Part shown: positions 25,452 through 63,984 of the stretch, one piece after another
Layout of the letters: each line of letters begins with the position of its first letter
How positions within the stretch are numbered: the first letter of the stretch is position 1
From: Spongilla lacustris
Taxonomy: Eukaryota; Porifera; Demospongiae; Spongillida; Spongillidae
DNA length: 64,000 nucleotides
Direction of reading: 5' to 3'
Assembly (NCBI GenBank): GCA_949361645.1
Contig: OX442426.1
Coordinates: forward strand, 3,592,673-3,656,672
Made by a program: the position numbers and the translations under genes
Notes under the pieces: generated by a model
What the model was told of the DNA's origin: nothing
Seen by the model: only the letters and a program-made list of their open reading frames with translations
Databases searched by the model: none

Positions 25452-26292
25452 GAATAGTATGTTTAAAGGTTTTAGATTTAATCTGATGTCATCATGGAAT
25501 ATGATAAACCATGTTAAACCATAAGTGTTATTTCTACACTGAGATATTCACAATGCAGGTAGTATCATTAAAATCATAATAACGCCTTTTAATAATTAAA
25601 CCATTACTAGTTAACAAATCTGGATACATAGGGATAGTATGTCTTAGTGTACTAGATTTAATGTACCATTGAATGGTTTATGATAAACCATGTTAAACCA
25701 TCAGTGTTATTTCTACACTGTGATATTCACAATTCATGTAGTATCGTTAAAATCATAATAGCAACTTTTAATAATTAAACCATTACTAGTTAGTAAATCT
25801 AGATAAGTACGGATAGTATGTCTGAGTTTATTAGATTTAATTTTAATTTACCATTCAATAGTTTATAATAAACCATGTTAAGCCATAAGTGTTATTTCTA
25901 CACTGAGGTGTTCACATATCATGTAGTATCATTTAAATCGTAATAACGACTTTTAATTATTAAACCATTACTAGTTAGTAAATCTAGATCTACATACATA
26001 TGGATAGTGTGTTTAAAGGTTTTAGATTTAATCTGACTTCATCATGGTGTATGATAAACCATGTTAAACCATAAGTGTTATTTCTAAACTGAGATATTCA
26101 CAATGCATTTATTATCATTAATATCATAATAACGACTTTTAATAATTAAACCATTACATATTAGTAAATCTATTTCCATATGGATAGTATGTCTGAGTGT
26201 ATTAGATTTAATTTACCATTATTCGGTTTATGATAAACCATGTTAAACCATCAGTGTTATTTCTACACTGAGATTTCACAATACATGTAGTA
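25452..26292 (+). repeat. Sat179 satellite, about 4.7 units, mixed types
   Basis: Two unit types alternate. Type A continues after GGATAGTATG with TCTGAGTGTATTAGATTTAA; type B continues with TTTAAAGGTTTTAGATTTAA, followed by a TGACGTCA-like word. Type B units start near 25452 and 26009. The array is cut at 26292 by a retrotransposon, in the middle of the word ATGTAGTATC. Confidence 0.94.
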
Positions 26293-29200
26293 CAGAATAC
26301 ATAAAAGGTTTGTTGCTCTAAGGATTGCAAAAGACAGTCGTGTTCTCATCCATCCCAATACCTCACTGTTTGACTTATCCCACTTATGAGCAAGTTTCTG
26401 AGCAAGATGTTTGATAAAAAAGCTAGCTTCTCCACCCAGGACTCCATCGACTGACACAACAAAGGATGTGAATGATGCTCGGCGAAGAGCTGCTGCTTCA
26501 GAGTACTTCTTTTTCTTCGCTTCCTCAGCTGAAGAGAGAATGGCAGAAACAACTCGCTGTGAGTGGGACGGGGCGTCAGTGTCTGTGACACGTACATCAA
26601 ACAACGCCACGGTCTGGGGCTGCCATACTCCTCTGATACTAAGGTCGGCAATTAGGGAGGGTACACCTTCAGCATCATTTGCCTCTTGCACGACTGGTTC
26701 TTTAACAACTTCCTTGACAACAACTGATGCTAAGTCGCCAATAACATCTCGAACTTCATTGTGACGTTGGGTTACCAGACCTCCCTGCTTGCAGTCAAGG
26801 GCATGCTCCAAACTAGTTGCAGCTCCACATCCATCACAATTTGAGGGCATATTCAACAGTGGTCGATTGTATCGCAATGTGATGGCATCATGGAATTCTG
26901 TGGCAGAAAGATCAAAGTGATGGTGAGCAATAGGCAGAGCAGTTAACCATGATGATGTCTTGCCCTCCACGGCCCGTTGTATTGCCCGTCTTGTTTTTGC
27001 ATTTAGCTCTGAATTGGCCAATGTTGAGCGAAGTGTGACCTCATCTTGCTGCTGGAGGGTGGTGTGCATGTTTGCCATTGCATCAGACATTTGAACATTG
27101 TGATCAGGTTTCCTTTGATGGCATCCACAAAGCTTGGTGTGCCTGCTCTGGATGTGGTTTAGGCAATCTTGGCACTTTCGATTGGATTGCGAACTCCCAT
27201 GCAACCTAATCGTGCAGGAATTGAGAATAGCTGCTTTTCATGATCAGAGATTGTACCTTCAAAAATGGCAGGCCAGAAATATTGGTACAAAGTATTCCAG
27301 ATTGGAGTAAATGCTTCCTCACAACAAGGAAGGATTCTTTGCAGGTAGGACCACTCAAACTGCATGGATTTGGATAGTGCAGCAAAAGCTGCTTGAGGCT
27401 GTGACTCAGCAGCTTTGGATAATTTGAGAAGATTGCTCACCCACCCTGTGATCTTGTTGTCAAGAAATTGTTTTGTGCTTTCACGGTCTCCAATGAACCC
27501 ACCTAAGAAGCGGTAGCCATTCACAACCTTAATACCCAGAGGTTGAAACATTGACTTAGCTTTTGCTTCATGATCTGCATCCACAATAAGGATACACTTC
27601 TCTGGCTCTGGATGATATCCATACTTGGGACCAAGATCACAAAGCTTGTCAAACCAGACACAGAGATCTGTGAGCTTGGCTGTGCAGGAGGAGTCATCTG
27701 CATACCAGTTTTGAATCCATGTAGTAGGATTAGAGAGTGATTTAATGAGTGGCATCAGTGCAGAAGCATACATCAGCATGGATAAAGGGTCACCTTGACC
27801 AACTCCTTCTTTGCTGTAGAGAGCTTCAGACTTGGTTGATCCTTGTAAAATAAGTGATGGATAACCACGATAGGTGTTAAACAAGAATCTGGAACAGCGA
27901 GGCCATTGAATACGAGAGTTCCAAAGGGCAGCAGCTCTGTTCAATGAATTAAAAACCTTCCTGGCATCCACAAGTAGCAACCCCCATCCTTCTGAGTGTT
28001 TTTCCTCATACAGCTCTCTCATAGCATGTACTGAACCTTCAATACCACTTTTCAAGCCTGAGCATAACTGGTCTACGCCACACAGATCTGTAAAGTCATC
28101 ACGTGTTACCATAGCAATGACTTTGCATAAGATACGTCTGGGAATCTCTCCAATAGCGATAGGTCGAACACCAGGACACTTGTCTAGTGCAATCAAACGA
28201 CTGGACATCACTGCCCTGATGTCTGACCATTCCACAATGCTGTTAGCTAAATGCCTGGCAAGTTCTGCAATTGCATCATGTAATTTCACACTGTGTGCAC
28301 CATAACGTAGAAGGAAGTCTTGCCAATGTGACGCTGTGGATCCACCAGGACCAGCACTGCCCTGAATCTGTCGGGCTACCTTCTCAACATAGGAACCTGT
28401 GATATCAACATCTATCAGGGGTGATAGCTCACTGCATGACAGGAAAGCCTCATCTGATGATTGGGCAGGATCAGGGTGTTTTTCTTTAAGGACATCCAGA
28501 ACTGTCTTTGGGCCATCGTTGGTATAAGTGGATATGTCCAGCACACCACCTTTGTCTGCTCTCTCGGTAAGCCATCGGACTGCTGCCCTAACTTGTCCTT
28601 TCAACATCAGATGGGTGAATACTTTAAGGATATGATGTTCATTGGATGAGGCATGAAATGACTTCGGCTGTTGTTTGGAACATCTGTTAAATTCAAAAAG
28701 GAGATCTTCATACATATCAGTTTTCCATGCTTGAATGCGACGTCGCAATAGCCTACCTAATATCACATCCTTTCTTTACCATGTTGTCACGTTGAAGCAT
28801 AATGCCTATAAATACAATGAATCTTTCAGAACGGACACGTGCCCTACATAACATTGAGACTTCTTGTGTGCGTATGTCAATGAACTCTCTCCCCACAGCA
28901 CCACAGGGCAGGTCGTAGTAACTACATCTTGTGGACACGATTTTTTTCCATCTTTTGCACCTGGTATCATCATCGTCAATCCTTGTATTCCGAGCTAGAG
29001 GAACACCAAAGGCCTGCCGCATTTTCCCGTCTTCTGTAAACTGATGTGGTAATTTCAATTGATCTCGGGCCGATAACCTCGGTGTGATGATGGACTCTGG
29101 AGATTGAGAAGAGCTGTTGTTGACAATAACCAGATCGTCTGATAGACTGCTACATGAGGTCGCGGACAGCTGGCAAGATGGTTCAAAGGAAGGCAGCTGT

Positions 29201-29433
29201 TGAACATCATTCTGTAACTTTGACTGTGACTCAGCCACTACGAAACAATTTGGCTGAGAAGCTGATCCTTTGTTTTGACAGTGACCGTGATTTGATGGGT
29301 GGCAATTTGTACATGGCTTTTTCGCTCTCGCACACACGCAGCGTAAGCATTTCGCATGTTCGCCGTTGCAATTACAACAACGAGACTTACTTGTTTGTTG
29401 AAGCACCGATAAAATTTGATAATCGCGGTCAGA
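26263..29433 (-). pseudogene. Family 1 retrotransposon protein: Cys-rich finger, RT, CCHC and restriction-like endonuclease
   Basis: The coding region lies in three frames: 28753-29433, 27159-28766 and 26263-27204. Breaks near 28760 and 27190 are placed by comparison with copy B. The N-terminus has a Cys-rich motif (CCNCNGEHAKCLRCVC...PCTNC). The RT core has the RPIAIGE segment, GVGQGDPLSMLMY and active site YADD. After it come CDGCG...HALDC (CCHC) with TQRHNEVRD, then ADLSI...FDVRVTD and KKKKYSE. This order and these residues fit the C-terminal restriction-like endonuclease of R2-group LINEs, which nicks target DNA to prime reverse transcription. The stop codon comes from satellite DNA beyond the element's end. 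It is non-functional because of the frame breaks. Family placement is inferred. Confidence 0.85.
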
Positions 29434-29484
29434 CATGCTAATGATGAACACACGCTACAATATGATCACAAAACCTAAAAACCT
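26293..29484 (-). mobile_element. R2-like non-LTR retrotransposon, family 1, copy A
   Basis: Minus-strand insertion splitting one Sat179 unit. Left flank ends ATGTAGTA (26285-26292) and the right flank resumes ATGTTGTATCATT (29485 on), giving an 8-bp target duplication with one mismatch. The element holds one long broken coding region: cysteine-rich N-terminus, reverse transcriptase, then CCHC plus endonuclease. The leader before the first likely ATG (29433) is only about 50 bp. The 3' end stops inside or just after the last codons with no tail. Confidence 0.88.
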
Positions 29485-31466
29485 ATGTTGTATCATTAAA
29501 ATCATAATAAGGACTTTTAATAATAAACATAATAAAATAATAAAAAACAGGCCTGTTCCAATGCTGGTTGCGTTAACAGTTTAGTGCGCTCGTTGAACTA
29601 TACTGATTAAAAATTGACTTAGGTTGCAGTGTCACGTTGACTTATATACGTGCACAAAACCACTCCAGATTCATTACCTATAGTCACTCTCCATATTACG
29701 ATATTCACAATACATGTAGTATCATTAAAATCATCATAATAATTAAACCATTCCTAGTTAGTACATATCGGTAGTATGTCTGAGTGTATTATATTTAAAT
29801 TACCATTAAATGGTTTATGATAAACCATGTTAAACCATCAGTGTTATTTCTACACTGAGATATTCACAATTCATGTAGTGTCATTAAAATCATAATAACA
29901 ACTTTTAATACTTAAACCATTACTAGTTAGTAAATCTAGATACATACGGATAGTATGTCTGAGTTTATTAGATTTAATTTACCATTGTATGGCTTATGAT
30001 AAACCATGTTAAACCATGTGCTATTTCTACACTGAGATATTCACAATTCATGTAGTATCATTAAAATCATAATAACGACTTTTAATAATTAAACCATTAC
30101 TAGTTAGTAAATCTATATTTATAAGGATAGTGTGTTGAAAGGTTTTAGATTTAATTTGACTTCATCATGGTGTATGATAAACCATGTTAAACCATCACTG
30201 TTATTTCTACACTGAGATATTCTCACAATTCATGTAGTATCATTAAAATCATAATAACGACTTTATATAATTTAACCATTACTAGTTAGTAAATCTAGAT
30301 ACGTATATACGGATAGTATGTCTGAAGGTATTAGATAAAATTTACTTATGAATGGTTTATGATAAACCATGTTAAACCATAAGTGCTATTTCTGCACTGA
30401 GATATTTCACAATACATGTAGTATCATTAAAATCATAATAAGGACTTTTAATAATTAAACCATTTCTAGTTAGTAAATCTAGATACATATGGATAGTATG
30501 TCTGAGTGTATTATATTTAATTTACCATTAAATGGTTTATGATGAACCATGTTAAACCATAAGGGTTATTTTTACACTGAGATATTCATATATCATGTAG
30601 TATCATTAAAATCATAATAACGACTTCTAATAATTAAGCTACTACTAGTATGTAAATCGAGATACATATGGATAGTATCCATGAGTGTATTAGATTTAAT
30701 TTACGATTGAATGGTGTATGATAAACCGTGTTAAATCATGTGTTATTTCTACACTGAGATATTCACAATACATGTCGTATCATTAGAATCATAATAACGT
30801 CTTTTAATAATTAAACCATTACTAGTTAGTAAATCTATCTCTATTTATAAGGATAGTGTGTTTAAAGGTTTTAGATTTAATCTGACTTCATCATGGTGAA
30901 TGATAAACCATGTTAAACCATCAGTGTTATTTCATGTAGTATCATTAAAAACATAAAAACGAAATTTAATAATAAACCATTACTAGTTAGTAAATCTAGA
31001 TCCATAAGGATAGTATGTCTGAATGTATTAGATTTAATTTACCATTCAATGGTTTATGATAAACCATGTTAAACCATCAGTGTTATCTCTAAACTGAGAT
31101 ATTCATGTAGTATCATTAAAATCTTAATAACAACTTTTAATAATTAAACCATTACTAGTTAGTAAGTCTAGATCCATATGGATAGTATGCCTGAATGTAT
31201 TAGATTTAGTTTACCATTGAATGGCTTATTATAAACCATATTAGACCATTAGTATTATTTCTAAACTGAGACTACACTGAGATATTCACAATACAAGTAG
31301 TATCATTAAAATCATAATAACGAATTTTAATAATTAAGCCATTACTAGGTAGTAAATCTATATAGTATGTTTAAAGGCGTTAGATTTAATCTGACATCAT
31401 CTTGGTGTATTATAAACCATGTTAAACCATAAGTGTTATTTCTACACTGAGAATTCACAATACATG
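29485..31466 (+). repeat. Sat179 satellite, about 10 units
   Basis: Mostly type A units, with type B units near 30130, 30860 and 31370. Interrupted at 29544-29699 by a dispersed 156-bp repeat. The array ends at 31466 within the word ACATG, where the family 2 retrotransposon begins. Confidence 0.94.
29544..29699. repeat. Dispersed repeat, copy 1 (156 bp)
   Basis: Near-identical to 45918-46064, starting AAAAACAGGCCTGTTCC and ending CTCTCCATATTAC. Copy 1 has nine extra bases (ACTTAGGTT, near 29620). No inverted ends or coding potential are seen. It sits within Sat179, so it is a mobile or transduced short element. Confidence 0.88.
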
Positions 31467-31500
31467 AGAAGATTGCCCATGGCTTGAGAGCGTGTGTTAA

Positions 31501-32218
31501 CACCGCGTCCGCGAGTTAAGTGGGTAAAATTTAGGGGAAACTAAGAAACTAAAAGCTCCGCTAGCAATAAAATCACAGGTACTGGTTGTAAAATAAGTAG
31601 AGTAACCTTTTACACTATGTTTGCATTATAATTTATAAGAGCTGCAACTATCGCAGTTTTGATGCACACACTTTAAATAGGCATATTGTGGTACTACACT
31701 TATCATTTTATCATTTTGCACCCCTTCCCTTCTTGACTGTAAATTCATAAGCATACATGAGCCATTTATATCAATGCAGCTCTTGGTTTCCCTAATAATT
31801 AAAATCATATGTGCATGCAGACTCGCAAAACCTCGTGAAAAGCATCCAAGCACGCGTAAATGTATTGAGTTATTTAGACACGATAGAACACATGCACACA
31901 GTTAAAAAAATACATCGCTTACGACTGAAAATCGATTGAAATGTGTAAAAGTTCAACCTGGCTTATACAATGTGATTATTGCCGTTTTTCTATGATGATG
32001 AATTAAGGTTTCATCGGAATGGACCCCTTTTATATCGCCGCATTTGTAGCATCCAGCGAGCTGAATGATCTCTCACAAAATGCATCCAATGTTGTCTCAA
32101 GAGTCGTACTTTCACATTACTGTATTTAAAAACAAAAATACCCATCAGCGGACCTTTTAGTTTCTTTACTTCCCCCAAAAAAGGCTTAAATTTACCCACT
32201 TTACTCGCGGACTCGGTG
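31501..32218. mobile_element. Non-autonomous TTAA-flanked DNA transposon (718 bp)
   Basis: The ends are inverted repeats: CACCGCGTCCGCGAG on the left and, read on the minus strand, CACCGAGTCCGCGAG on the right, with similarity continuing for about 60 bp. TTAA flanks both sides (31497-31500 and 32219-32222). Removing the element and one TTAA restores the RT reading frame (CVNKYWLDDDF), which matches copy C (CVEKHWMDEDF), so the boundaries are certain. TTAA targets are used by piggyBac and Kolobok among others; I do not assign a superfamily. Frames inside show no transposase. Confidence 0.92.
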
Positions 32219-32724
32219 TTAATAAGTATTGGCTGGATGATGACTTCGTGGTCCTAAAGGTGGACATGAAGAATGCCCTAAATTTGGTCTCACGGGACGC
32301 TATCCTCTCGGAGTGTAGCAAACACTTCCAAGAGCTGCCCCCTTGGGCCACCTGGTGTTACAGTCAGCACCCCATTCTGTGGCATCCTATGCATAGGCAG
32401 CTTACATTAAGAACAAGGGTTTCAGCAGGGTGATCCTCTTGGTACTCTGCTCTTCTCCCTGGTTTTAAACAAGGTAGTGTCAGAAATCACTGCTAACTCT
32501 GTGTGTGCAGATTTGTCCTACCATGCCTGGTACCTGGATGATGGTGTGCTGGCTGGTCCCAGGTCTGCTGTTCTTCAAGCTCTCTCCATCATGCAAGAGA
32601 TTGGTCCTCTTAATGGTCTCATTGTAAACTTCCATAATGTGAGATATTTAGCAAGCATGATTTCAGCCTTTTCCCTCCAGAAATGAAAGGATGAACACCC
32701 CCTAATATTGTCATCTTGGGCATC
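32219..32724 (+). pseudogene. Family 2 RT core, copy 1
   Basis: Encodes DFVVLKVDMKNALNLVSRDA (RT block with the first catalytic Asp), then after a frameshift near 32415 FQQGDPLGTLLF, then AWYLDDGVLAGPRSAVLQ with the YLDD active site. It aligns with 60720-61250 of copy C throughout. It is cut at 32724 within the words for VILGIP by the 3.86-kb transposon, beyond which the frame resumes at 36582. Confidence 0.88.
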
Positions 32725-32981
32725 CCCAGCAAAAAGTTCTTGCGCAAGACTTGCCCAAGATCTTGCCTTCTTGGGCAAGTCTTGCCCAAGATTACTCAAG
32801 ATCTTGCCTTCACAGGCAAGAAATGTGTAAGGTACTTTGAGTTCTGCGTCAGAGCATAGGACAAGAGGTACTCATTAATTTACTGCCCCTTTTAGTGAGG
32901 TTTCTGTACATTACACTGATGCAAATTACATTTATAATGTCAAAACAGCATACAACAAGTATAGCTCAGCTCCATTATTTC

Positions 32982-33439
32982 TCAGTGTTTTTCATAAGAA
33001 TTAACTATTATATCACTATGAGAATGTTTGATAGCTATAGGGATATGTATATGCATTTCTGTACTAATGACGGAAGCTACTGTAATAATCTTTGTAATAG
33101 ACACTTTCTTCCCTTTTACAAAGAATATATCTGTTGCTGCATTTGCTAAGTCAGGCTTGCTAAATGGTATGTCATTCAAAATGCCATCCTGCTCTCACTC
33201 AAATTAAGACATCAATTCAGTATAGCAAAAGGTCCTTCTATCAATATACAGAATTTTCTAACTGACCCAAGCCTTCTGATTCCTTCATCCTCAAACTCAC
33301 AAACTGAACTGTCTCGTAGTGTCTTCTTATCTTTTACATGATATGAAGTGTTTTTCAAATAGTATGATTTAAAGGTTGACACAGCATCATCTGTACCCTG
33401 AAACCCAGCATTACGAATAGCTTCTAGCTTATCTTTCAA
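32982..33439 (-). other. Unrecognised coding-like stretch in the 3.86-kb transposon
   Basis: Two adjacent minus-strand open frames (33212-33439 and 32982-33179) have balanced, protein-like composition, for example KDKLEAIRNAGFQGTDDAV and NDIPFSKPDLANAATDIF. I do not recognise the family. They could be exons of a captured host gene or of a decayed transposase. No splice structure can be proven. Confidence 0.25.
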
Positions 33440-34429
33440 TAATTAATAAAACACCTTTTACTATATATTTTTCTTCGTATTCCATCTTCATTGCAATCTC
33501 CATACTAAAAATCCATTCCTAATCATTCAAGTGCCTGGTAGACAGCAACATAATATAACTCTGTGTAATTAGTTCTTCTCTCACATCTAATGTAATTCCA
33601 GCATCCAGCAAGCCTTAAGTCATATGAATGTTCTTACCTTCTAAAACGATTTTTCAACTTGACTACCTCTTACACAACATTTCATTTCATTAAAAAAAAA
33701 AATCTATCATACATGTAAAGGTGTTACAGAAATACGTAGTGAATTACAATTGGAAAATCATAATCCATGAAGGGCTTCATTTGAAACATGTACAAGTTTT
33801 ATAAGGTCTGACAAAGCTTTTTAAAAGTGAGATTGTGACGAAGAGACTATTGCACAAAAAGTATACTAGATTTTGGAGGAGTTTAAGTCCCAGCGTATTA
33901 GTGCTTGAAGGTCGGTCGCTAAAATCGGTCGGTAGCTCGGGTTCATCGGGCAAATACTTACTCCAAAGACTGAAAAAAAGTCTTCTGCTGCACATTCGAG
34001 CCCATTTTGTATGATTCCGTCAGATGTTTCACTAGTCTGGGGATCAGACTGTAGTACAGCCATCTGTCTGGTCCCCAGACTAATGTTTCACATGGCACAC
34101 CATTTAATATTTTTAAAAGATCGTACGCGTGTCCCAGTCCATCGAGCAACCATGTGCATCATCAGCTTTTTTTCTAAGCGCCTTCTTACGTATTAGGCTA
34201 CCTAGTAGATCTACTGAGTCGACGCAACTTTGGATAAAGGTCTGAAACGGTAATCATCGTAGACCGCCATCATCTTTTCAGTTATCTCCTCACGTGACAT
34301 CAAATCACGTGATATACAATACTCTTGTTCGGCTATAATGTGGTAGTGAAAAGAAGGCGTGCAAATGAGCGACTTAGTACTGGTGCGGTGACTGATCGAC
34401 GAGACACTGTGCGTCATATCAACAGCAAA

Positions 34430-35100
34430 TGCCGAAAACGCTGGTTCCTACGTTGGAGCTATTTCTAGAATCCGATGGAGTGGATATTATGAAGAGCAAA
34501 AAAATAAGCCAATTACAGTAACACATCAGGTAAGTCGTTCGGAGACTATTTTAATTTATAACCTTAAACCTAATCCTCCCTTTTAACATACCTTACATAT
34601 ATCAGCTATGTCTAGTAACAGTGATGATGATAGTTTCCAATAATATCATCTCATTGCCATCCAATGTCAGGTAAGCTATATTGTACATTTGTGTTTATTT
34701 ATGCATGTGTATACTATTACTATTTGATGCTTCACATATATGTATAGGCAGACAAGAACAAAGTCTCAATGAACAGGTTGGGATTTATTGATTATGGATG
34801 TGTCCTGATTCTTCTCTGGTACTTAGGTGACATATACATATATGCTGCGGTGGACTGCAATGAGGCCACTGTACAGCATAGGAAGAAGCAGCCAGTCTGC
34901 AGACTACGTACAAGATGACATTCCTAAGCAGCGTATAGTAAGGAGTCCTGGAGCAGCCAGTCTGCAGACTATGTACACGAAGACACTCCTAAGCAGCATA
35001 GTAAGGAACAGCCTGCCGATCCTGTTGATGAGAGTAGTGAGTCTAATCTTGTTATTTTTTTGCCTCAATCATTTTAATTCACATCATACAGTGGCTTAGA
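34430..35100 (+). other. Possible short exons in the 3.86-kb transposon
   Basis: An open stretch (about 34420-34529) reads through AGSYVGAISRIRWSGYYEEQ to a consensus donor, CAG|GTAAGT. Further donor-like CAGGTAAG occurs near 34670. A stretch of about 65 bp carrying AGCAGCCAGTCTGCAGACTA is repeated near 34888 and 34952. This may be part of a spliced gene carried by the transposon, but no protein family is recognised. Confidence 0.25.
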
Positions 35101-35375
35101 AAGCTAGTGAAGCCAGCAGTGCCTGTGAATAGGAAACAGGTACATTGAAATATACTATTCATTTATACATTGCAGGTTGAATTGCTATACCCAATGCCAA
35201 CTAGATGAAGCAGTTGACCAGAGCTATGATTGTCATATGGAGCTTGTTATAAGTCTAATGCCAGTGTAGCACCCAGCCAGCGTCAAAATGGTAATAGCAA
35301 TGAGAAGTGCAATACATACATACAAATGACGCCTTATATACTATACTAAAAGAATATTCTGGAGCAGTTCAGCAC

Positions 35376-35870
35376 GTGATGCCGTTACACTGCTTCCTCC
35401 TTCAAAAGGACATGTCCACATGTCATGCTAAAAATAAGTCACACTTCCAAGCCTTTCAGGAGGCTGCCTTATGCGGTTGGAACGACGTAGTTGGACCTGC
35501 TCAACCTGTTGAGGTTCCATGTCATCACCCTCCATGGCTGGGTTTTCAAGGTTGTCCCCTGCTGGCTCCTCCTGCTCAACTGGCTCCTGATTTTCTGTGT
35601 CAGCTGGTGCCAACTGTGCAGTCCTATTCCGTACTACCAGCATGCCATAATTTTCGTCCTCTGACTCGGCTTCTACCTCCCTTTTCTCCCCAGAATCTGC
35701 CTTTTTCTCTTCCCACGGCACATCCTCTGGCACATCACCCTGCTGGGAAGGACTGGTTTCTTCTCTCTGCTCTGCCCTGTGCACATATGGCTTCAACCTA
35801 TCAAAATGTACTGTGTGCTGTTTGTGGGGACTGACATCTTGTTTGTGATGCCGTTACACCAGTATTCTTC
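35376..35870 (-). pseudogene. Fragment of a second gypsy element: pol C-terminus, polypurine tract and LTR start
   Basis: Minus-strand frame (35428-35796 and upstream) reads TVHFDRLKPYVHRAE, then an acidic linker, then QLRRSNRIRQPPERLG, the usual C-terminal end of gypsy integrase. Downstream on the same strand are a purine tract (GAAGGAGGAAGCAG) and TGTAACGGCATCAC, the expected start of a 3' LTR with an AGTATATAAGG TATA-like word beyond it. The same 15-bp word (plus strand GTGATGCCGTTACAC) stands at 35376-35390 and at 35845-35859, where pol sequence begins. No other part of the element is present. Confidence 0.75.
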
Positions 35871-35879
35871 ACACCTTCT

Positions 35880-36260
35880 ATCATGGATGTGTCAAGTCGC
35901 GGAGCTAATGCATATGTAAGACAACATTAAAACGCACCAGATCTGGTTAAGTATGGTCTTGCATTGCTCGATTGCATCTTCAGCAAACATGAGCAATGAA
36001 CTCCACAACGAGCAAAACTTTGTCCACAAAACCTCCTTTGTCACCTACAAGAGTGAAGTTACTTGAAGGTACAATATTTGAAGTCAACATTGTGAAATAG
36101 TTATCTTATCCATTTACAGAATGTATTGACAAAACGTTTGAGAATGGATCATGATCAGTGACAGCACATGATTACGAGATCAGGAAATCCCTCAATCCAA
36201 AGTGTAGGAACAAGCTGAGAGAGAAACTGTTTTTAAAAAGAAAAGTTGCTGAATGGCAAG
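35880..36260 (+). other. Decayed BEN-domain-like stretch (tentative)
   Basis: Pieces such as DLVKYGLALLDCIFSKHEM and, after interruptions, SLNPKCRNKLREKLFLKRK resemble the start and end of BEN domains (DNA-binding domains often found in animal transposon-linked genes). The match is from memory and weak, and frames are broken. Confidence 0.2.
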
Positions 36261-36581
36261 TAGTGCATGATGTGTTAACATACAACACTGTAATGTGCAA
36301 TGAGAGCTCCGATAGTATGATGATTTGAAAAAGACATTCATGTCAAGTCATGTGATGTGGGAATGGGTCCACGGCATTAATACTCTTCGACAAGAGTCTT
36401 GAGCAAGTCTTGGACAAGATCTTGTGCAAGACTTGCCCAAGATTTTGGCTGCCATAATCTTGGCGTCTTGGACAAGATCTTGGGCAAGTCTTAGGCAAGT
36501 CTTGGGCAAGTCTTAGATAAGTCTTGCCCAAGCTCTTGCCCAAGATCTTGGGCAAGTCTTGCGCAAGAACTTTTTGCTGGG

Positions 36582-37865
36582 ATCCCCATTGGTGACTAGG
36601 CTTTTTGCTCCACCTTCATTTCGGAGAAACATGTAGAAGCCAAAGCTCTCCTGCTCAAACTGGAGGAAGTGAGTGCAGTTGACCCACATGTGGCCTTTTT
36701 CCTTCTACGTCAATGTGCGGGATTCTGTAAGCTGGCCCACATTGCTCGTGGCACACCACATTCCCAAGCCATATCAGCCCTTGAGGCCTTTGATCACAAC
36801 ATCCGATCAACCTTCTCCAAGTGCACAATAGTTGACACCTCCAATCAGGCCTGGCAACAGGCGGAGCTCAGCTTAGGCAGGGGTGGCCTGGGCATGCGCT
36901 CCCTGAGTTGGCATTCACCAGCAGCATACATTGCCTCTCTGAGCTCCTCTGGTGCTGGTCCATTGTCCCAAGAACACCTTACCCATGCAGTAGAGTTGTT
37001 TAACTCACTTGTTCCTTCATCTGAAGCGATTAGCATTGAAAATATGTTGACATCCCCTATCAATCAGAATGTGCTTTCCAACAAAATAGACAGCCACCTG
37101 TTTAATGTACTATTGGAGCAATCTTCTCCTGCAGATAGAGCACGCCTTCTCTCTGTCTCCTCCCCTCATGCTGCATCTTGGGTGTCAGTAATTCCCTCCG
37201 AGGGGCTAGGCCTTCATCTTCAGCTTTCAGAGTTCCGGGTGGCCATCAAATGGTGGCTGGGCCTAGACACCTCAGGTGGCTCAATTTGTCCCCTGTGTCC
37301 TGGAAAAGTGCTGGACCCCCTTGGCCATCATGCACTTACCTGCAAGCGTGGTGGAGATGTTGTAACCCGCCATAATAAACTGCGTGACACCCTTACTGAG
37401 ACCTGTCGCAGGGCCCACCTGAGTGTTAAGGTGGAGGCAGGAAGTAGCCTAACTCATGACCATAGCCACACTCGCCCTGCAGACATACTAGTACCCAACT
37501 GGTCTCTGGGTAAGCCGGCAGCCTTTGACTTGTCTGTGACGTCACCGCTTAACTCCAATGTTTTACTTGAAGCTGGACTAGCAGCAGGTCAGGCTGCCAG
37601 AGCTACTGAGCTGAGAAAGCATGAAGAAAACGATGCCAAATGCAAGGAGCTAGGGTGCGTTTGTGTCCCCATGGTGGTTGAGGCATATGTTGCTTGTGGG
37701 AAAGAAGCAATGGAGTCTTTGGCACTTCTGGCCTCTCGCCTTGCAACCAGCTGCAACAGGGCTAAGGCTGTGGTCCTAGCTGAGCTGTACGGCAAGCTGA
37801 ACCTCTGCTTAGTTAGAGCCAACGCTGTAGCCATCCTCTCCAGATGTTTTGTACCAGACCAGTAG
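36582..37865 (+). pseudogene. Family 2 retrotransposon C-terminal half: linker, CCHC and restriction-like endonuclease (copy 1)
   Basis: A long open stretch from about 36626, after an in-frame TAG close to the transposon boundary (36617-36619). The middle region (FHLQLSEFRVAIKWWLGLD-like) leads to CPLCPG...GHHALTCKRGGD (CCHC finger), TRHNKLRD, then RPADILVPNW, AAFDLSVTSPLN, a basic helix (TELRKHEENDAKC) and VPMVVEAY. The spaced acidic residues in PAD and FDLSV plus the Lys-rich helix fit the R2-group PD-(D/E)XK-type endonuclease. It aligns with copy C along its whole length (61300-62471). The C-terminus is VRANAVAILSRCF. Confidence 0.88.
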
Positions 37866-37911: not shown

Positions 37912-37914
37912 GGT

Positions 37915-54769: not shown

Positions 54770-54798
<29 letters not shown>
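54768..54798. repeat. (TAA)n tail of the CR1/L2-like element
   Basis: About ten TAA triplets on the plus strand ((TTA)n on the element's coding strand) mark its 3' end against satellite. Confidence 0.85.
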
Positions 54799-54864
54799 TT
54801 CATGTGCATGTAATATACACATAGGCAAGTAATGGCATAAATTAGATATGCACTAGTATACTGC

Positions 54865-57647
54865 CTAAAATGCGTAGCATTTACAAAAAATAGATAAATC
54901 AACATTGTTCAGCATTAACCTAAACGTACTTTCTGAGGATGATTTAACAACAGTGTCAGGCAGTGAGTTCCAAATCGGTATGATTCTAACTGAAAAGAAA
55001 TTTGCACGGTAATTGTGATGTGGTGTTGTTAGAGGACTAAGTTTGATGGAGTTCCCTCTTGTTGTATAGGGTGACAAGTTTATGTGGAAAAAATCTGATG
55101 CATCAAGGTCAACAAGTTTTTTCACTATTTTAAAGCACATAACTAGATCCAAAAACACTCTTCTATACTCCAATGAATGAAATCCAAGCATAGAAAGCCT
55201 ATCAGCATAACTAGTCATAGGTATCTTTATTCTTTTAAAGAGTGATCTGGTAAAGTAACGTTGAACTCTTTCAAGAGTTTTAATATCTTTTACAAGCCAA
55301 GGATTCCATACTGGAGCATTATATTCCAGAATGGGTCTCACATATGAATGAAACACTCGACACAGCGCAGATATATTCAGTGTACGAAGAGCTTTAAGTA
55401 GGAGTGAACACCTTTGAAAAGCCTTAGCAGCAATATATGCACAATGCAAGCTCGGTTTAAAATCAGATGTGATATGTACACCTAGGTCACGGATATCAAA
55501 AACTCTATTCAAAAGCACGCCACCTAGAGAATAAGAGTGACTCGCTGAGTTATGCCCAAAGGATATCACGCTGCACTTCTGAAATGCAATATTAAGCTGC
55601 CAGGTTTGAGACCACACACTAAAATTTAATAAAGATAAAGTCAAAGGTGAAGATGAGTTGGATGAATGAGTAGCATACTGTTTGGTATCATCTGCAAAAA
55701 TTTTAGCTTGAACTGGTGGCTCTAAACACTCAGGAAGGTCATTGATATAAATGAGGAACAATAGAGGTCCAAGTACTGATCCTTGAGGAACACCACTGGA
55801 TACAGGTAGGGAAGAAGATAAGGACTGACCAATATAGACTTGCTGTGAACGATTCGTAAGAAAAGAAGATAACCACTTTACCAAGGAAGAACTAAATCCA
55901 TAGCATTCCACTTTATGCAGAAGCTTAGTGTGAGATATAGAATCAAACGCTTTAGCAAAGTCTATATACACAGAATCAACCTTATCGCCAAAATCAGTAT
56001 GTAGAGTCCATTCATTAAGTGTCATTAACAATTGAGTACAAGTGGAACGCCTGGCAAGAAAGCCAAACTGGTCTTTCGAGATAAGACTGTTTGAACGTAG
56101 AAAGGTAACCATTGATTCACACACAATAGACTCCATTACTTTGCAACAAACACTAGTAAGAGAAACTGGACGATAATTGCTGGGTAATTTACGCAAACCT
56201 TTCTTGAATATAGGACAGACCATCGCCTTTTTCCAACTTAGAGGTATATCCCCACAATCCATAGACAGTCTAAAAAGCCTGGACAACGTTATTGCAATAC
56301 CAGGGGCGACTGATTTTAAAAACCCAGCAGGAAAACCATCTGGTGTTCTAGAGTATTTGGAAGGAAGACGATTTAGGGCACATATAACATTATCATAAGT
56401 AAATTCAACTTGTTGAGAAACTTGTATACTAGATACCGCAGGATGGAAGATGGGTAGAACACCATTATCAGTTGTAAATACAGAAGAAAAATAATCATTG
56501 AAAACATTGCATTTGTCATAATCCATTGTAGCAAGGGAACCGTCTGACTTCATTAAAGGTGGGATAGACAATGTGTGACAAAGTTTCATATTCACATATG
56601 AATATAGTTTAGATAAATCATTACTGTTGATGACATATGACTCACGATAATCATAAAAGGATTTCACCGCCAGTTCATACTCCTTAGCAATTTTGTTGGA
56701 TTTCACTCTATTTTTATGAAACCACTTCTTTTTTAAGAGCAACAATTTACGAATATGTTTTAAACATTTTGGTTTACTAAATAAAACGACCCTTCGTAAA
56801 GGAACAAACTTTTCAATGCATTCATTTAACTTCATAGATAAAACATCCCAATAAACATCCACCGAACAAGATTGATCAAGCATTTGCCAATTGACATCCA
56901 TTAAGAAAGTTATCATTGAAGTGTAATCTGCAGCTTTAAAGTCTCTACAATACAAGATGGAGTTTGCGGTATGATGGCAAGGACATACAATCGTGAATTC
57001 AACACATGAATGATCGCAAGAGATAACAAAAGGATCAACAACTGAAATATCAACAATATATTGACATCAGAAACCATCACAAGGTCGATACAGTGATTTC
57101 CCCGAGTAGGGGAATTAACAAGTTGAGTAAGACCATTTTCTAAGACACACGTCAAGAAAAGACTGCTACAAATTGAACCATTATTGACAGGGACACTTCA
57201 ATCAATGTATGGGTAATTAAAATCACCAACAACTACAACTTGCATCTTGGAGATGCAATAACTGTCAAGACATGAGCATAAACATGAAATATGAGTAACA
57301 TCATTTGCCATGGAAGGAGGATTATAAATACAAATAAAGCGATACTGTACAGAGGAAAACAACACATCAAAAATGATGCATTCAAGCCGTTGAAAACAAG
57401 GTAAAAGATCAATATACTCAATCTTTAACCCATGTTTCACAAAAACTGCAACACCACCAAAATTATCAGGCCTATCTTTGCGTATCAATGTATATGCAGA
57501 ATTACAAAGCAGAAGAGAATCAGTGATATCAGAATAAAGCCATGTTTCAGTAACAAATATAAGATCAAATTCACAAGTCAAAAGCAAGATATTTAGGACA
57601 TTTAATTTGTTACACAATGATCTCGCATTAATCAATTTACACTTCAA
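54865..57647 (-). pseudogene. LINE ORF2: AP endonuclease and reverse transcriptase
   Basis: The N-terminal endonuclease of the apurinic/apyrimidinic type shows LINARSLCNKL, FVTETWLYSD, GGVAVFVK and GDFNYPYID; an in-frame TGA (57198-57200) follows where Trp is usual. A one-base shift near 57060 moves the frame before the final SCDHS motif. The rest (54865 to about 57060) is one open frame: YFSSVFT, SRTPDGFPAGFLK, PVSLTSVCCKVME, YIDFAKAFDSI, SGVPQGSVLGPLLFLIYIND, FADD active site, and YNAPVWNPW. These blocks are characteristic of CR1/L2/Jockey-type LINEs. With only two lesions this copy is young but not autonomous. Confidence 0.92.
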
Positions 57648-57671
57648 ATTTCCACTACTTGCCTGCCTGTC

Positions 57672-58523
57672 CTATACATTACCACTGCGACCAGATGCTG
57701 TTAAATCAGAAGAGTTGGAGTCACGTACTTTACTTTCTCTAACCATCCACTGAGAAACGGGGCCACGCCTATCTATATAATAGCTCTGACCAGATTCAGT
57801 TCTTTTTGTCTGCATGATTTCATAAAGAGTACGAATATGACTACATTCAGCAGAAGTATGGCTGGGTCGAATAAAAACATTTTTGAATTTCACCGACTCT
57901 TTAAGTATCTTTGCTTTCCGTAGAATCGCAGTTCTCTGATTTGCATTACCCACACGAACTTTGACTAAACGTGGTTTTGCACTAAGTCCTTCGCTTGACT
58001 CGCTTGACTCCTTCCCAAGTCGGAAGGCATCAATTAGAACAACACTATCTTTGCAAATGGAATCAAAAACTTCTTTAACCGCTGCCTTATCAGTAACGAC
58101 GCTACCAGTTTCCTTCACTCCAGAAACAATAACACAAAACTTTTCATCATGGGCTGAAATAACTTCCTTTACAGCTTTGCTGACATCCACAGGAGCAACA
58201 GTACATGCATTACCCCCTACGGAACTATGTAGAGTCGAAGGCCCAACAGCGCTAGTTTCCGTTTTTGCTACAAACTCAGCAAACTTCTGCTCAAGTTTTG
58301 AAACCCTAAGCGGCAAGTCTTTTAGGGATGTTTCGCAATTCGGACACGGAGTACAAACTTTTTTTACCACACATAACACGTCATGACTCACGTTTACAAA
58401 CGTACTCGAGCATTCCGAATGAAAAAACAACCCGCAGTATGTGCAACACAATCCATTTGGCTTCGTCATATCCACCGACCTCTTTTCACAGACAGAGCAC
58501 TGTTTACCCGGCGCCATTTTCAT
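57672..58523 (-). CDS. LINE ORF1 protein with PHD-like zinc finger and coiled coil
   Basis: Intact frame of 283 codons starting at the edge of the satellite (MKMAPGKQ). Residues of about 9-75 hold a Cys/His pattern of PHD type: CSVC, CCTYC, FHSEC, CTPCPNC. A short heptad-like helix follows (LPLRVSKLEQKFAEFVAKTE). The second half (CVIVSGVKE...VKVRVGNANQRTAILRKAK) resembles the RNA-binding ORF1 domain found in many CR1/L2 elements. It should package element RNA. A second Met at residue 3 could be the real start. The frame shows no breaks, unlike ORF2. Confidence 0.85.
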   Translation of the reverse strand: MKMAPGKQCSVCEKRSVDMTKPNGLCCTYCGLFFHSECSSTFVNVSHDVLCVVKKVCTPCPNCETSLKDLPLRVSKLEQKFAEFVAKTETSAVGPSTLHSSVGGNACTVAPVDVSKAVKEVISAHDEKFCVIVSGVKETGSVVTDKAAVKEVFDSICKDSVVLIDAFRLGKESSESSEGLSAKPRLVKVRVGNANQRTAILRKAKILKESVKFKNVFIRPSHTSAECSHIRTLYEIMQTKRTESGQSYYIDRRGPVSQWMVRESKVRDSNSSDLTASGRSGNV

Positions 58524-58524
58524 A

Positions 58525-59350: not shown

Positions 59351-60437
59351 ACATGTATTGTGAATATCTAAGTTAAGAAATATCACTTATCGTTTAACAT
59401 GGTTTATCATAAACTATTCAATGGTAAATAAAATCTATTACACTTAAAGTCGTTATTATTATTTTTTATGATACTACATGTATTGTCAGTGTAGAAATAA
59501 CACTTATGGTTTAACATGGTTTATCATAAACCATTCTATGGTAAGTTAAATCTAATACACTCTGACATACTATCCATATAGATCTAGATTTACTAACTAG
59601 TTATGGTTTAATTATTAAAAGTCGTTATTATGATTTTAATGATACTACATGCATTGTGAATATCTCAGTGTAGAAGTAAAACTTATGGTTTAACATGATT
59701 TATCATAAGTCATTCAATAGTAAATTAAATCTAATACACTCATACACACTATCCATATGGATCTACATTTACTAACTAGTTATTAAAGTCTTTATTATGA
59801 TTTTAATGATAATACATGAATTGTGAATATCTCAGTTTAGAAATAACACTTACGGTTTAACATGATTTATCGTAAACCATTCAATGGTAAATTAAATCTA
59901 ATACACACACACTATACATATGGATCTAGATTTAATGACTAGTAATGGTTTAACTATTTAAAGTCTTTTAATGATACTACAGTCAAAGTGATGTAGGGTA
60001 GATATATAGTTAGCATTTTGTGTACATTGTGTTTAGTCTATGTTTATATATCAGTGTATTTGTGCATGTCCATTTATCCTGTAATGATTATAAATTAATG
60101 AATGTCAAAGACTGCATTTATTGTGAATATCTCAGTTTAGCTTATGGTTTAACATGGTTTATCATAAAACATTGAATGGTAGATTAAATCTAATATACTC
60201 AGACATACTATCCCTATGCATCTAGATTTACTAACTAGTAATTAATTATTAAAAGTCTTTATTATGATTTTAATGATAATACATGTATTGTCAGTTTAGA
60301 AATAACACTTATGGTTTAACATAGATTATCTTAAGCCATTCAATAGTAAATTAAATCTAATACACCCATACCCACTATCCATATAGATCTACATTTACTA
60401 ACTAGTTATTAAAAGTTTTTATTATGATTTTAATGAT
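59351..60437 (-). repeat. Sat179 satellite in reverse orientation, about 5.3 units
   Basis: Units now read as the reverse complement (TGTGAATATCTCAG ... GTTTATCATAAACCATTC). It is interrupted at 59981-60113 by a short insert and ends at 60437 (GATTTTAATGAT) where copy C begins. Both interruptions fall at the same place in the unit. Confidence 0.94.
59981..60113. mobile_element. 133-bp insert at the shared Sat179 target site
   Basis: Reverse satellite reads ...TTTTAATGATACTAC, then 133 unrelated bases (AGTCAAAGTGATG ... GTCAAAGACTG), then satellite again from CATTTATTGTGAATATC. The break lies in the same word (GATACTACATG) as in copies A and C. It has no coding content and may be a severely 5'-truncated 3' untranslated region of a related retrotransposon; that is inference. 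Confidence 0.65.
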
Positions 60438-62471
60438 GCAGCAGAAGTACACCTACAAATACCTATGCTTCAATCACTTAGAGCAGTCATCAACATGCTG
60501 GCACTGGGTAAAGCTCATAAAGAGGTTTCTGTTTACCTGGCTGGAGCCAACCTCACAGCTCTGAATAAGTCATCACCAGGAGATATCCGCCCTATTGCAG
60601 TTGGTGAGTCTCTTTGTAGGTTGACGGCAAAATGCCTATGTGTGGCAATAAAGACAAAGGCTGCAGATTTCTTTAATCCTTTTCAGTATGGTGTTGCGTG
60701 CTCCTTTGGAGCTGAGAAAATTGCACACAGTGTAAGATCTTGTGTTGAGAAGCATTGGATGGACGAGGATTTTGGAGTCCTCAAAGTTGATATGAGGAAT
60801 GCTTTTAACCTAGCTTCTCGTCAAGTTCATATATCCGAGTGTGAAAAGCATTTTCCAAAGTTGCTTCCATGGGTAAGTTGGTGCTACAGTAAGCACCCAT
60901 TGTTGTGGCATTCTATGGGATCCCTCACATCAGAGTCTGGAGTCCAGCAAGGCAATCCTCTGCCTTTTTTGCCTTGTTCTGAACATCCTAGTGCTTAAAA
61001 TACATGTAGCTAAGGACATTGATTGCTCGAGCCTTTTGCTCCATGCATGGTACTTAGATGATGGGGTCCTAGCTGGTCCAAGGTCTGCTTTGCTGAGGGT
61101 TATATCACTGCTCCAACAGGATGGACCCTCTTTAGGGCTTTTCATCAATGTTGGCAAGTGTGAGATCTACGGTCGTAACCACCTAGAGGGATTTCCTGAG
61201 CAGATTGTTAAGTCAAACAAAGCATGTTTTGTAATCCTAGGAATCCTAATTGGTGATGCAGAGTTCTGTGCCTCGTTTATTTCTTCAAAGCGTGTTGAAT
61301 CCAAATTACTTCTAGATAAACTTGAGGAAGTTGGTGCAATTGACCCTCATGTGGAATTAATTCTAATTCGCCTTTGTGGTGGTTTTTGTCGCCTAAATCA
61401 CATTGCTCGCGCTACCCCCCCCCCCCCCCCAATCCATTTCGTTTAAGGCTTTGCAATTGTTTGATGAGGATGTTCGCCGGTGTTTCTCATCATCCACAGG
61501 CATTGAAATGTCCCTTGCCCATCATGCAAGTGCTGCCTTTATTTCTTCTTTGTCTTCCCCCAAACTCTTCCCAACATTTGTCTGATGCAGTGGGCATGTT
61601 TAATCAGTTAGTCCCTGCTGAGGACAGCATTAAGTTTGAGGACTTCCTGTCATCTGCTATCTCTCAGGGCAAGTTATCAGAGAAACTCGATAACCAACTT
61701 CTCAGTTCCCTCATGGAAGCTTCTACAGTTGCAAACAAGGCTCATTTGCTGTCCGTCTCGTCACCTCATGCAGCCTCCAGGTTATCAATGCCACCATGTG
61801 AGCGCCAGGGGCTCCACCTTGAACCATCACAATTTCAAGTTGCTGTCAAGTGGTGGCTAGGTTTAGACACTTCTGGTGATGCCCAATGTGCACTGTGTCC
61901 TGAAAAAAGTCTAGATCCTCTTGGCCATCATGCCACAACATGCAAGCGTGGTGGGGATGTTGTCTATCGCCATAACAGGCTTCGGGACATTGTGATCGAG
62001 TCCTGTCGCCATGCCCATCTTAGTGTCCATTTAGAAGTAGGCCATAACCTTACTCCCGACCACAGCAACACACATCCAGCAGACATCCTCATCCCTCACT
62101 GGTGCATGGGCAAGCCTGCGGCTCTGGACCTATCCGTTACTTCTCCGCTTAACCCACTTACCCTTCTGGAAGCGGGAGTGACGGCTGGCGCAGCAGCTAA
62201 GGCTACCGAGGAGAGAAAGCTTAAAGCCAACATGGGCAAGTGTGCTGATTTGGGTTGGGTATGTGTCCCGGTTGTTGCGGAGTCTTATGGGGCATGGAGT
62301 TTGATGGCTAGGGATTTCTTTTCTAAACTTGGGTCCCGTTTGGCTACATCATTGGGAAAGTCAAAGTCAGTGGTCATCCATGAGCTGTACGGGAGGTTGA
62401 GCATGAATCTTGTCAGGGCCAATGCCACCGCGATCCTGTCCAGGTCCATACCTCCTCCTGAGCTTCAGTAG
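60438..62471 (+). pseudogene. Family 2 RT with CCHC and restriction-like endonuclease (copy C)
   Basis: Frames 60438-60998, 60991-61446, 61403-61585 and 61374-62471 together give one protein. RT blocks: GDIRPIAVGESLCRL, FGVLKVDMRNAFNLASRQ, GVQQGNPL, AWYLDDGVLAGPRSALL, FVILGILIGD. A shift near 60975 and the C run (61415-61430) with its neighbourhood break the frame. The C-terminal part holds KWWLGLDTSG, CALCPEKSLDPLGHHATTC (CCHC), YRHNRLRD, HPADILIPHW, ALDLSVTSPLN and TEERKLKANMGKC, the endonuclease signature shared with 36582-37865. The stop is 62469-62471. N-terminal domains are absent through truncation. Confidence 0.9.
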
Positions 62472-62560
62472 GCTAGCAACTTGTTTTGTGCATATCATGT
62501 GTCTGTGTCATGTTTGTACTGTATCAATCCAATATGAATTAATAGTAATAATAATAATAC
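60438..62560 (+). mobile_element. R2-like non-LTR retrotransposon, family 2, copy C (5'-truncated)
   Basis: Inserted in reverse-oriented Sat179: the left flank ends GATTTTAATGAT and the right flank resumes ACAATACATGAATTG after a (TAA)n tail (62540-62559). The coding part starts directly at the junction without a start codon, as expected of 5' truncation. This is the longest family 2 copy not split by other transposons. Confidence 0.9.
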
Positions 62561-63228
62561 AATACATGAATTGTAAATATCTCAGTTTAGAAATAACACT
62601 TATGGTTTCACATGGTTTATCGTATACCATTCAATGGTAAATTAAATCTAGTACACTCAGACATATACTATCCATATGGATCTAGATTTACTAACTAGTA
62701 ATGGTTTAATTATTAAAAGTGGTTATTATGATTTTAATGATACTACATGAATTGTGAATATCTCAGTTTAGAAATAACACTTATGGTTTGACATGGTTTA
62801 TCATAAACCATTCAATGGTAAATGAAATCTAAAACACTCAGACATACTATCCATGTGTATCTAAATTTAATAACTAGTAATGGTTTAATTATTAAAAGTC
62901 GTTATTATGACTTTAATCATATTACATGTATTCAGAATATCTCAGTTTAGAAATAACACTTATGGTTTAACATATGCTACATTAAATCTAACACTCTTAA
63001 ACATACTATCCATATAGATATAAATTTACTAACTAGTAGTGGTTTAATTACTAAAAGTCGTTTTTATGATTTTAATGATACTACATGTATTGAGACACAT
63101 GGTTTAACATGGTTTGTCATAAACCATTCAATGGTAGATTAAATCTAATACACTCAGACATACTATCCTCATAGATCTAGATTTGCTAACTAGTAATGGT
63201 TTAATTATTGAATTATGATTTTAATTAT
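62561..63228 (-). repeat. Sat179 satellite in reverse orientation, about 3.7 units
   Basis: Reverse units continue from the copy C right flank to 63228, where they break at GATTTTAATTAT, corresponding to GATTTTAATGAT in the copy C left flank. Confidence 0.93.
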
Positions 63229-63984
63229 AAATATTATTATTATTCAAGAAAATGGCGGGCATGGAAGAGGCGGAGGACGAAGATGAGGATGAAAGCCGTT
63301 TGGAACTTTGTGATAGATACTTTGTGGAGGGAAAATCGGAAGAATCAGATGAATCGGAAGAGGATGGGCTAGCGAAGGACCCCGATCATATTAGCTGCGG
63401 TACCAGATGGCTAGACAGTGACGACAGCTCGCAGGTCATTACAGATTGCACTCCAACAAGCAAAGTGCCGATGCATAGAAGCGCAAGTGAAGCTGGAGGA
63501 AACTCCTTCCGGCACTCGTTTCAAGAGAAAAGCGGCTTCTTTTTACGAACTCTGCAATCAAGAGGAGGAAAGTGCACGTGTAGAGTTACTTAAGTATGAA
63601 GAAGAGGGAGTTATATGTGATCTCCGTCACGTTCGTGCATGATCAGATCTGGTTGAAGAAATTGATAGCTTGACGCGTTCAATTGGTTGGATGGTAGTTG
63701 ACCTTAAGCCAGACCAGAAATGGGAAGTTGCGCACGACAGAGTAATGGCACAAGATCTGCTGTCGCGTAGTGAAAGAAAAGCGGGAAACCTGAAAAAAGC
63801 ATTGAGAGATTGGGATGCAGGGCATACTGGTGACAATGCGGAAGGGTGCGACTCGGAAGTGGCTGTGAAAAGGGAGGGGTCCCAGATCCCTCTACCGATT
63901 AACACCATGCAAGGGCCTGTACATCCGAAAGCTGTCTCAAACGACTTCGTGAATCTTTCAAAAAACCCACCAAAAGTTGAATGA
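63229..63984 (+). pseudogene. N-terminal protein of another element at the Sat179 site (copy D), function unknown
   Basis: After the satellite break and a short (ATT)n run comes ATGGCGGGCATGGAAGAG. The first frame (63252 to about 63420) is strongly acidic (EEAEDEDEDESRLELC, SEESDESEEDG). A one-base shift leads to a helical, charged frame (IALQQAKCRCIEAQVKLEE, ESARVELLKYEEEG), then an in-frame TGA (63640-63642), then DLVEEIDSLTRSIGWMV to a stop at 63982-63984. I recognise no domain. From its position at the shared target it may be the 5' gene of a full-length element related to copies A-C, with the RT beyond the window; that is inference. Confidence 0.45.

What the first reader, a model, noticed from the sequence alone, without database searches (positions are those of the whole stretch)
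26285..63240. Five insertions at one nucleotide position of a 179-bp satellite: a satellite-targeting R2-like LINE system
Seen: copy A breaks the unit at ATGTAGTA (26292), with an 8-bp duplication at 29485. The copy 1 composite leaves satellite at ACATG (31466) and re-enters at ATGTAGTATC (38392). Copy C leaves at GATTTTAATGAT (60437). A 133-bp insert breaks at GATACTAC (59980). Copy D breaks at GATTTTAATTAT (63228). All fall within about 8 bases of the same point in a 179-base unit, on both satellite orientations. Copies A and C, the minus-strand fragment at 38.0-38.4 kb and D face the same way relative to the unit. Known: R2-group LINEs carry a restriction-like endonuclease and are often site-specific (rDNA and other repeats). 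Inference: this lineage has adopted a satellite as its safe target. Copy B, with a rearranged 5' flank, does not show the site.
Basis: partly seen in the sequence, partly recalled or inferred. Interest (0 to 1): 0.82.

Follow-up and report, generated by a model that had tools for sequence, protein, structure and literature searches.

The report
Jumping-gene hot spot in sponge satellite
In a freshwater sponge, several families of R2-like jumping genes have landed at nearly the same few bases of a probable centromere repeat, but the copies checked sit mainly elsewhere, one family often in short TAA repeats, so the repeat looks like an occasional landing spot and not a dedicated home.

Summary
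The junction clustering is real but smaller than claimed; the "satellite-targeting system" reading fails its own test. In the window, A, copy 1, the 133-bp insert and C break Sat179 within units 1-8. Two claimed members drop out: the 38.0-38.4 kb fragment lies in copy 1's 3'UTR with a 13-bp duplication; D matches no element protein used as query. Of 13 RLE-derived insertions with mapped junctions, 9 lie in units 175-10 (scan p 2e-5); with pessimistic aligner placements 7 of 13 (p 0.002). Outside the window, without a pattern-selected case, it is 4 of 7, or 2 of 7 pessimistically (scan p 0.055 both). Six families by 3' end take part; six hits run against the unit, three with it. Yet among 30 held loci each of families 1C and 2, long Sat179 flanks only the window copy and its C17 duplicate, about the chance level for a satellite near 1.2% of the genome. 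Family 1C has (TAA)3 in 10 of 22 5' flanks; family 2 in 1 of 25. Sat179 is probably centromeric; the host is probably Spongilla lacustris.

The parts
25449..26292 (+). Sat179 array, left flank of copy A; ends at unit 8
26293..29484 (-). Copy A, family 2 RLE LINE (RT frame 27159-28766, RLE-side frame 26263-27204, N-terminal frame 28753-29451); 8-bp duplication of ATGTAGTA; lacks about 140 bp near its 3' end compared with relatives
29714..31466 (+). Sat179 array between copy A and copy 1 (A's right flank starts at 29485; 29528-29713 is poorly matching)
31467..38391 (+). Copy 1, RLE LINE running with the unit, 5'-truncated (RLE frame 36669-37865); junctions at units 3 and 1; carries later inserts
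37912..38329 (-). Later RLE fragment inside copy 1's 3'UTR, flanked by CTATTAACATGTA; absent from the C17 duplicate; not a satellite-site insertion
38392..39938 (+). Sat179 array, right flank of copy 1
39976..43228 (+). Copy B, related to family 2, with an internal inverted piece; 5' junction at unit 47-54, a miss; 3' limit approximate
54770..58520 (-). CR1-like element in Sat179 at unit about 109 (control; limits approximate)
59982..60110 (+). 133-bp insert: 3'UTR of another RLE family (same sequence follows an RLE frame in L058); 5' junction at unit 2
60438..62563 (+). Copy C, family 1C RLE LINE, 5'-truncated, with a (TAA)n tail; 5' junction at unit 8
62564..63229 (-).

Best explanation
Several co-resident families of R2-like (restriction-like-endonuclease, RLE) LINEs in a freshwater sponge spread by target-primed reverse transcription. 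As far as sampled none has the satellite as its main home; family 1C often enters (TAA)n tracts, including TAA tails of other elements, which builds head-to-tail trains. When they land in the probable centromeric satellite they favour one short stretch (units 175-10, CACAATACATGTAGTATC, beside the imperfect TAATGATAATAC tract of the other strand), because it suits their endonuclease and tail-annealing preference better than most of the unit. Shown: the families, their R2 kinship, the junction cluster, the dispersed copies and the TAA flanks of family 1C. Inferred: target-primed reverse transcription, that sequence preference and not chromatin picks the site, and that Sat179 is centromeric.
For: 9 of 13 mapped RLE events lie in units 175-10 (A, C, 133-bp, copy 1, L075, L077, L108, L070 family 3, L118), scan p = 2e-5, 4e-5 without L075, which a pattern aimed at the site had found. 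Six of the nine run against the unit, the strand with TAATGATAATAC; several 3' junctions merge TAA tail and tract. Target-site duplications at A (8 bp), L077 (8 bp), the 37912-38329 fragment (13 bp). Family 1C: (TAA)3 sense in 10 of 22 5' flanks, 4 of 22 antisense; family 2: 1 of 25 each; random windows 0.5% (window) to 0.8% (family 2 loci), 5.3% in the tail-rich 1C loci themselves. In 10 of 28 family 1C copies the 3' end runs within 35 bp into a same-strand RLE/RT frame, 0 of 28 in family 2. R2 kinship. One miss, L109 at unit 43-48, lies at another TAA-like tract of the same strand.
Against: With the aligner's literal placements (L077 at 169, L108 at 12, A at 1, B at 47) only 7 of 13 fall in the stretch, scan p = 0.002, and outside the window 2 of 7 instead of 4 of 7; scan p there is 0.055 either way. 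Equal or better TAA-like 12-mers on the other strand (units 14-16) and equal palindromes elsewhere are not hit. Family 2 has no TAA habit, yet A is at the site. Three hits run the other way. A Penelope-like element (GIY-YIG) sits at unit about 10 in L110. RLE against non-RLE clustering is not significant (9 of 13 v 1 of 5, Fisher p = 0.12).
Confidence: 0.5

Rival explanations
1. The hot spot belongs to the satellite and not to the elements: units 175-10 are an exposed linker between phased, perhaps centromeric, nucleosomes or a recurrent break point, so elements of different kinds and repair filler land there.
For: Six families and both orientations meet there; a Penelope-like element with a different endonuclease sits at unit about 10 (L110); an internal RT fragment without its own 3' end lies at 169/172.
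Against: Two CR1-like insertions (about 109 and 141/134), the 26-bp-repeat block (74/73) and a 2-kb insert (77/74) are elsewhere; six of nine RLE hits share one orientation.
Confidence: 0.27
2. A satellite-targeting R2-like LINE lineage.
For: Position preference; family 3 has 3 of 40 scored copies with a 3' end directly in Sat179, P = 0.013 for 1.2% of the genome, though only 2 of these 3 (L070, L118) are at the stretch.
Against: Families 1C and 2: only the window copy and its C17 duplicate among 30 held loci each; copy 1's family 2 of 20 fetched flanks, one being the C17 duplicate. In Cuscuta, 91% of L1-CS copies are associated with their satellite (PMC8091179).
Confidence: 0.08
3. Small-number or duplication artefact: a few events multiplied by segmental duplication.
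For: C17 holds a 98.5% inverted copy of window 58521-64000 and L077/L078 are near-identical; the independent set is small and its scan p is 0.055.
Against: Both duplicates were collapsed before counting; the nine hits differ in family, truncation point or contig; pessimistic placement still gives p = 0.002 over 13.
Confidence: 0.1

Closest known systems
Dong (R4 clade, Bombyx mori), an RLE LINE flanked by TAA repeats (recalled; passages of PMC3774820 show the TAA-repeat 5' junction)
   Same: Family 1C: RLE-type element, TAA on the 5' flank in 10 of 22 loci, TAA tails.
   Different: Clade not tested; family 2 lacks the TAA habit; occasional entry into a satellite.
HERO clade LINEs, some microsatellite-specific (PMC4640811, passages)
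   Same: RLE-encoding; mix of non-specific and microsatellite-associated families.
   Different: No tree could be built; clade membership unknown.
L1-CS LINEs in the Cuscuta europaea satellite CUS-TR24 (PMC8091179, passages and section 3.3)
   Same: LINE insertions prefer defined positions of a satellite monomer.
   Different: There 91% of copies are satellite-associated and one L1 lineage is involved; here few copies and several RLE families.
R2 of 28S rDNA (structures 8gh6, 8iby, 8ibw, 9nl2)
   Same: Only confident sequence and fold matches.
   Different: Copies are dispersed; no rDNA target seen in the flanks looked at.
YURE of Ciona, occasionally in a U2-derived satellite (PMC4640811, passages)
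   Same: RLE LINE that only sometimes enters a satellite.
   Different: Target there is a U2-like sequence; not examined here.

Membership tests
R2-group (RLE-encoding) LINEs | RT related to R2 | tested here: met
   R2 proteins are the best solved-structure matches by sequence (9nl2 E 6e-5; 8gh6 E 4.7e-4) and the only fold matches below 1e-3
R2-group (RLE-encoding) LINEs | CCHC motif followed by an RLE domain | tested here: inconclusive
   C363, C366, H376/H377, C381 and P426-A427-D428, D443 are invariant in the 18-row alignment A1; naming them CCHC and RLE core is recalled, no Pfam match covers that part
R2 proper | Insertion in one site of 28S rDNA | not tested
   Copies are dispersed, but flanks were not searched for rDNA
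Dong-like TAA-repeat insertion | TAA repeat on the 5' flank | tested here: met
   Family 1C 10 of 22 against 0.5-0.8% background; not met for family 2, 1 of 25
R4, HERO or NeSL clade | Position in an RT tree | not tested
   No reference sequences of these clades were available in the calls
Satellite-targeting LINE (Cuscuta L1-CS type) | Most copies in the satellite | tested here: not met
   Families 1C and 2: one event plus its duplicate in 30 loci each
Satellite-targeting LINE (Cuscuta L1-CS type) | Insertions cluster at a preferred monomer position | tested here: met
   9 of 13, scan p 2e-5; pessimistic placement 7 of 13, p 0.002

The most novel reading that the evidence does not exclude
Units 175-10 are a structural hot spot of a sponge centromere: an exposed linker or recurrent nick in phased centromeric nucleosomes that captures RLE LINEs of several families, Penelope-like elements and repair filler alike, so that the insertions map centromeric chromatin at base resolution in an early-branching animal.
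Probability: 0.2. Interest if true: 0.65.

Novelty: new member of a known kind. Interest (0 to 1): 0.4.

Why it matters
It replaces an apparent satellite-specific LINE by a more exact statement: several R2-like families in one animal, one of them drawn to TAA repeats, share a preferred landing stretch in a probable centromeric satellite. Because six families, both orientations and one unrelated element type meet within about 15 bp, the satellite is a natural assay for whether LINE landing is set by endonuclease sequence preference or by chromatin. The Spongilla and Ephydatia genome papers do not use the word satellite in their main text (term look-ups in two papers), so Sat179 may be a first look at sponge centromeric DNA; no wider search was made beyond.

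Tried and rejected
Satellite-specific lineage: rejected for families 1C, 2 and copy 1's family. Pattern search for TAA tails abutting the site: 27 rows, of which I fetched 17 regions (the C4 and C16 rows were not fetched); 12 were only natural satellite variants (GATTTTAATAATAATACATG and the like), 2 were copy-1 3'UTRs (L071, L074), L075 was an insertion at the site and L077/L078 carried one nearby. ACATG as a shared target word: suggested by some family 2 flanks, not borne out. TAA tract or palindrome as sole predictor of the site: neither is unique in the unit. D and the 37912-38329 fragment as site insertions: rejected. The structure model is weak (pLDDT 57.5) and serves only for R2 kinship.

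Counting. Hits: A, C, 133-bp, copy 1, L075, L077, L108, L070 family 3, L118. Not in the stretch: RT fragment (169/172), B, L109, L101. For L118 and L101 only the 3' junction is known. Where the aligner bridged gaps or tail microhomology (L077, A, L108) I placed the junction by eye; one search gives the result without that. Dropped before counting: C17 duplicates of window copies, L078, D, the 37912-38329 fragment, L115 (satellite not directly adjacent), and rearrangement borders at 39642/39653, 39938/39939, 51406 and 58627/59350. For the TAA test L061/L062 and L023/L025 share a flank each; in the train count L043/L047 and L061/L062 do.
Full report
Setting. The window is G000:C13:3592673-3656672 of a 248.56-Mb assembly in 51 contigs. 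The named relatives of copy C's protein in the listed best 120 are from Ephydatia muelleri. Span and longest contig (31.127 Mb) fit the published Spongilla lacustris assembly (248.7 Mb, longest scaffold 31.14 Mb, though 70 scaffolds; PMC12141999, abstract and passages), so the host is inferred to be S. lacustris. Sat179 has a 179-bp unit. A 22-mer of it has 8,903 matches with up to one mismatch, which at the hit rate in held satellite means about 3.0 Mb, 1.2% of the genome. Only 100 places of that search were listed; from these, and the fetched loci, Sat179 is seen on 15 contigs, in one interior region each apart from a single stray hit at C2:3.857 Mb. A centromeric place is likely, not shown.

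What the window holds. With phase 1 = ATGTAGTATC, copy A breaks the unit at 8 and 1 with an 8-bp duplication, copy 1 at 3 and 1, the 133-bp insert at 2, copy C at 8. The 133-bp insert is the 3'UTR of another RLE family (the same sequence follows an RLE frame in L058; 40 scored copies). The minus-strand fragment at 37912-38329 lies in copy 1's 3'UTR between two copies of CTATTAACATGTA, and the C17 duplicate has the empty site. D gives no match and its satellite flanks face opposite ways. Copy B is a miss at unit 47-54. Non-RLE inserts in the window lie at 74/73, 77/74 and about 109.

What the elements are. Among solved structures the matches below E = 0.001 are 9nl2 for A's RT and 8gh6 for P0001, a 96%-identical relative of copy C, both R2 proteins; the four fold matches below 1e-3 are all R2, from a model of low confidence. 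Cysteine/histidine and P-A-D ... D columns are invariant in 18 aligned proteins; reading them as CCHC and RLE core is recalled. The clade (R4/Dong, HERO or other) was not tested.

Genome-wide test. Family 1C: 40 of 429 first-look candidates were scored and 30 loci with 1.5-kb flanks held; Sat179 longer than 100 bp is present only beside the window copy and its C17 duplicate. Family 2: 40 of 325 scored, 30 held, the same. Short satellite-like pieces of 19-72 bp occur in L013, L016, L044 and L046. Copy 1's family: 40 of 919 scored, 20 3' flanks fetched; Sat179 in L088 (the C17 duplicate) and L101 (C15, entering at unit about 96-105, a miss). Family 3: 40 of 249 scored, 98-100% identical; of 14 examined 3' ends three run directly into Sat179, L109 (a miss), L070 and L118; three of 40 has P = 0.013, a hint of enrichment. 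L108 family: 40 of 498 scored, one in a known block by coordinates alone. 133-bp family: 40 of 335 scored; the window copy, the C17 duplicate, and one in the C1 block whose 3' flank is not Sat179. One satellite insertion in 40 copies is what random landing gives (P of one or more = 0.39).

Where they go instead. In 22 family 1C loci with a placed 5' edge, 10 have (TAA)3 on the sense strand next to it and 4 have the antisense form; family 2 has 1 of 25 each way; random windows give 0.5% (window) and 0.8% (family 2 loci), and 5.3% in the tail-rich 1C loci. In 10 of 28 family 1C copies the 3' end runs within 35 bp into a same-strand RLE/RT frame, 0 of 28 in family 2. This resembles Dong, which is flanked by TAA repeats (recalled; passages of PMC3774820).

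The preferred position. Thirteen RLE-derived insertions in Sat179 have a mapped junction. Nine lie in units 175-10 (A, C, 133-bp, copy 1, L075, L077, L108, L070 family 3, L118), one RT fragment at 169/172, and B, L109 and L101 elsewhere. Scan p for nine in any 15-bp stretch is 2e-5; without L075, found by a pattern aimed at the site, 4e-5. With the aligner's literal placements it is 7 of 13, p = 0.002. Outside the window and without L075 it is 4 of 7 (binomial 0.0014 for the predefined stretch, Rayleigh 0.09) or 2 of 7 with literal placements, scan p 0.055 in both. L108-L110 were fetched only because they interrupt the satellite. Six hits run against the unit; copy 1, L070 and L118 run with it.

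Mechanism. I favour a shared target preference during target-primed reverse transcription: the stretch lies beside the imperfect TAA tract TAATGATAATAC on the strand that most hits follow, and several 3' junctions merge tail and tract. Gaps in this: TAA-like 12-mers as good or better on the other strand are not hit, the palindrome is not unique, family 2 has no TAA habit, and a Penelope-like element (RT plus GIY-YIG) sits at unit about 10 in L110. An exposed linker or break hot spot is the main rival. RLE against non-RLE clustering is not significant (9 of 13 v 1 of 5, p = 0.12).

Known and new. [quoted passage not shown] What is added is several RLE families in a sponge converging on one short stretch of a probable centromeric satellite. 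Searches listed no such report in the titles and abstract openings shown; the library lacks most subscription papers.

Noticed in passing
L046 (C1:25715673-25719210), oriented positions 2404-2495: An RLE copy carries about 90 bp of rearranged Sat179 between its 3'UTR and its TAA tail, as if satellite RNA had been copied along with it.
   Followed up: partly
L013, oriented positions 2407-2425: A 19-bp exact Sat179 piece lies beside a family 2 3' end; it starts within two units of the piece in L046.
   Followed up: no
window 37881-37897, and L090-L107: The 3'UTR of copy 1's family holds ATGCATTGTGAATATCT, 16 or 17 of 17 bases like Sat179 just beside the preferred position, possibly satellite picked up by an ancestor.
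   Followed up: partly
C17:3674379-3679898 (L070): A 98.5% identical inverted duplicate of window 58521-64000, suggesting exchange between the satellite blocks of two chromosomes.
   Followed up: partly
about 31500-32220: A DNA-transposon-like insert with terminal inverted repeats (ACACCG...CGGTGT) interrupts copy 1 (read by eye).
   Followed up: no
41439-41762: Copy B contains an internal segment in inverted orientation.
   Followed up: no
523-25451: Large arrays of a 26-bp repeat with a Gypsy-like element and other repeats interrupt Sat179 at units 74/73.
   Followed up: no
L110 (C2:8134250-8144100): A Penelope-like element (RT plus GIY-YIG) of about 9.3 kb interrupts Sat179 at unit about 10.
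   Followed up: partly
40 places listed: RLE family 3 has 40 scored copies at 98-100% identity, which suggests recent activity.
   Followed up: partly
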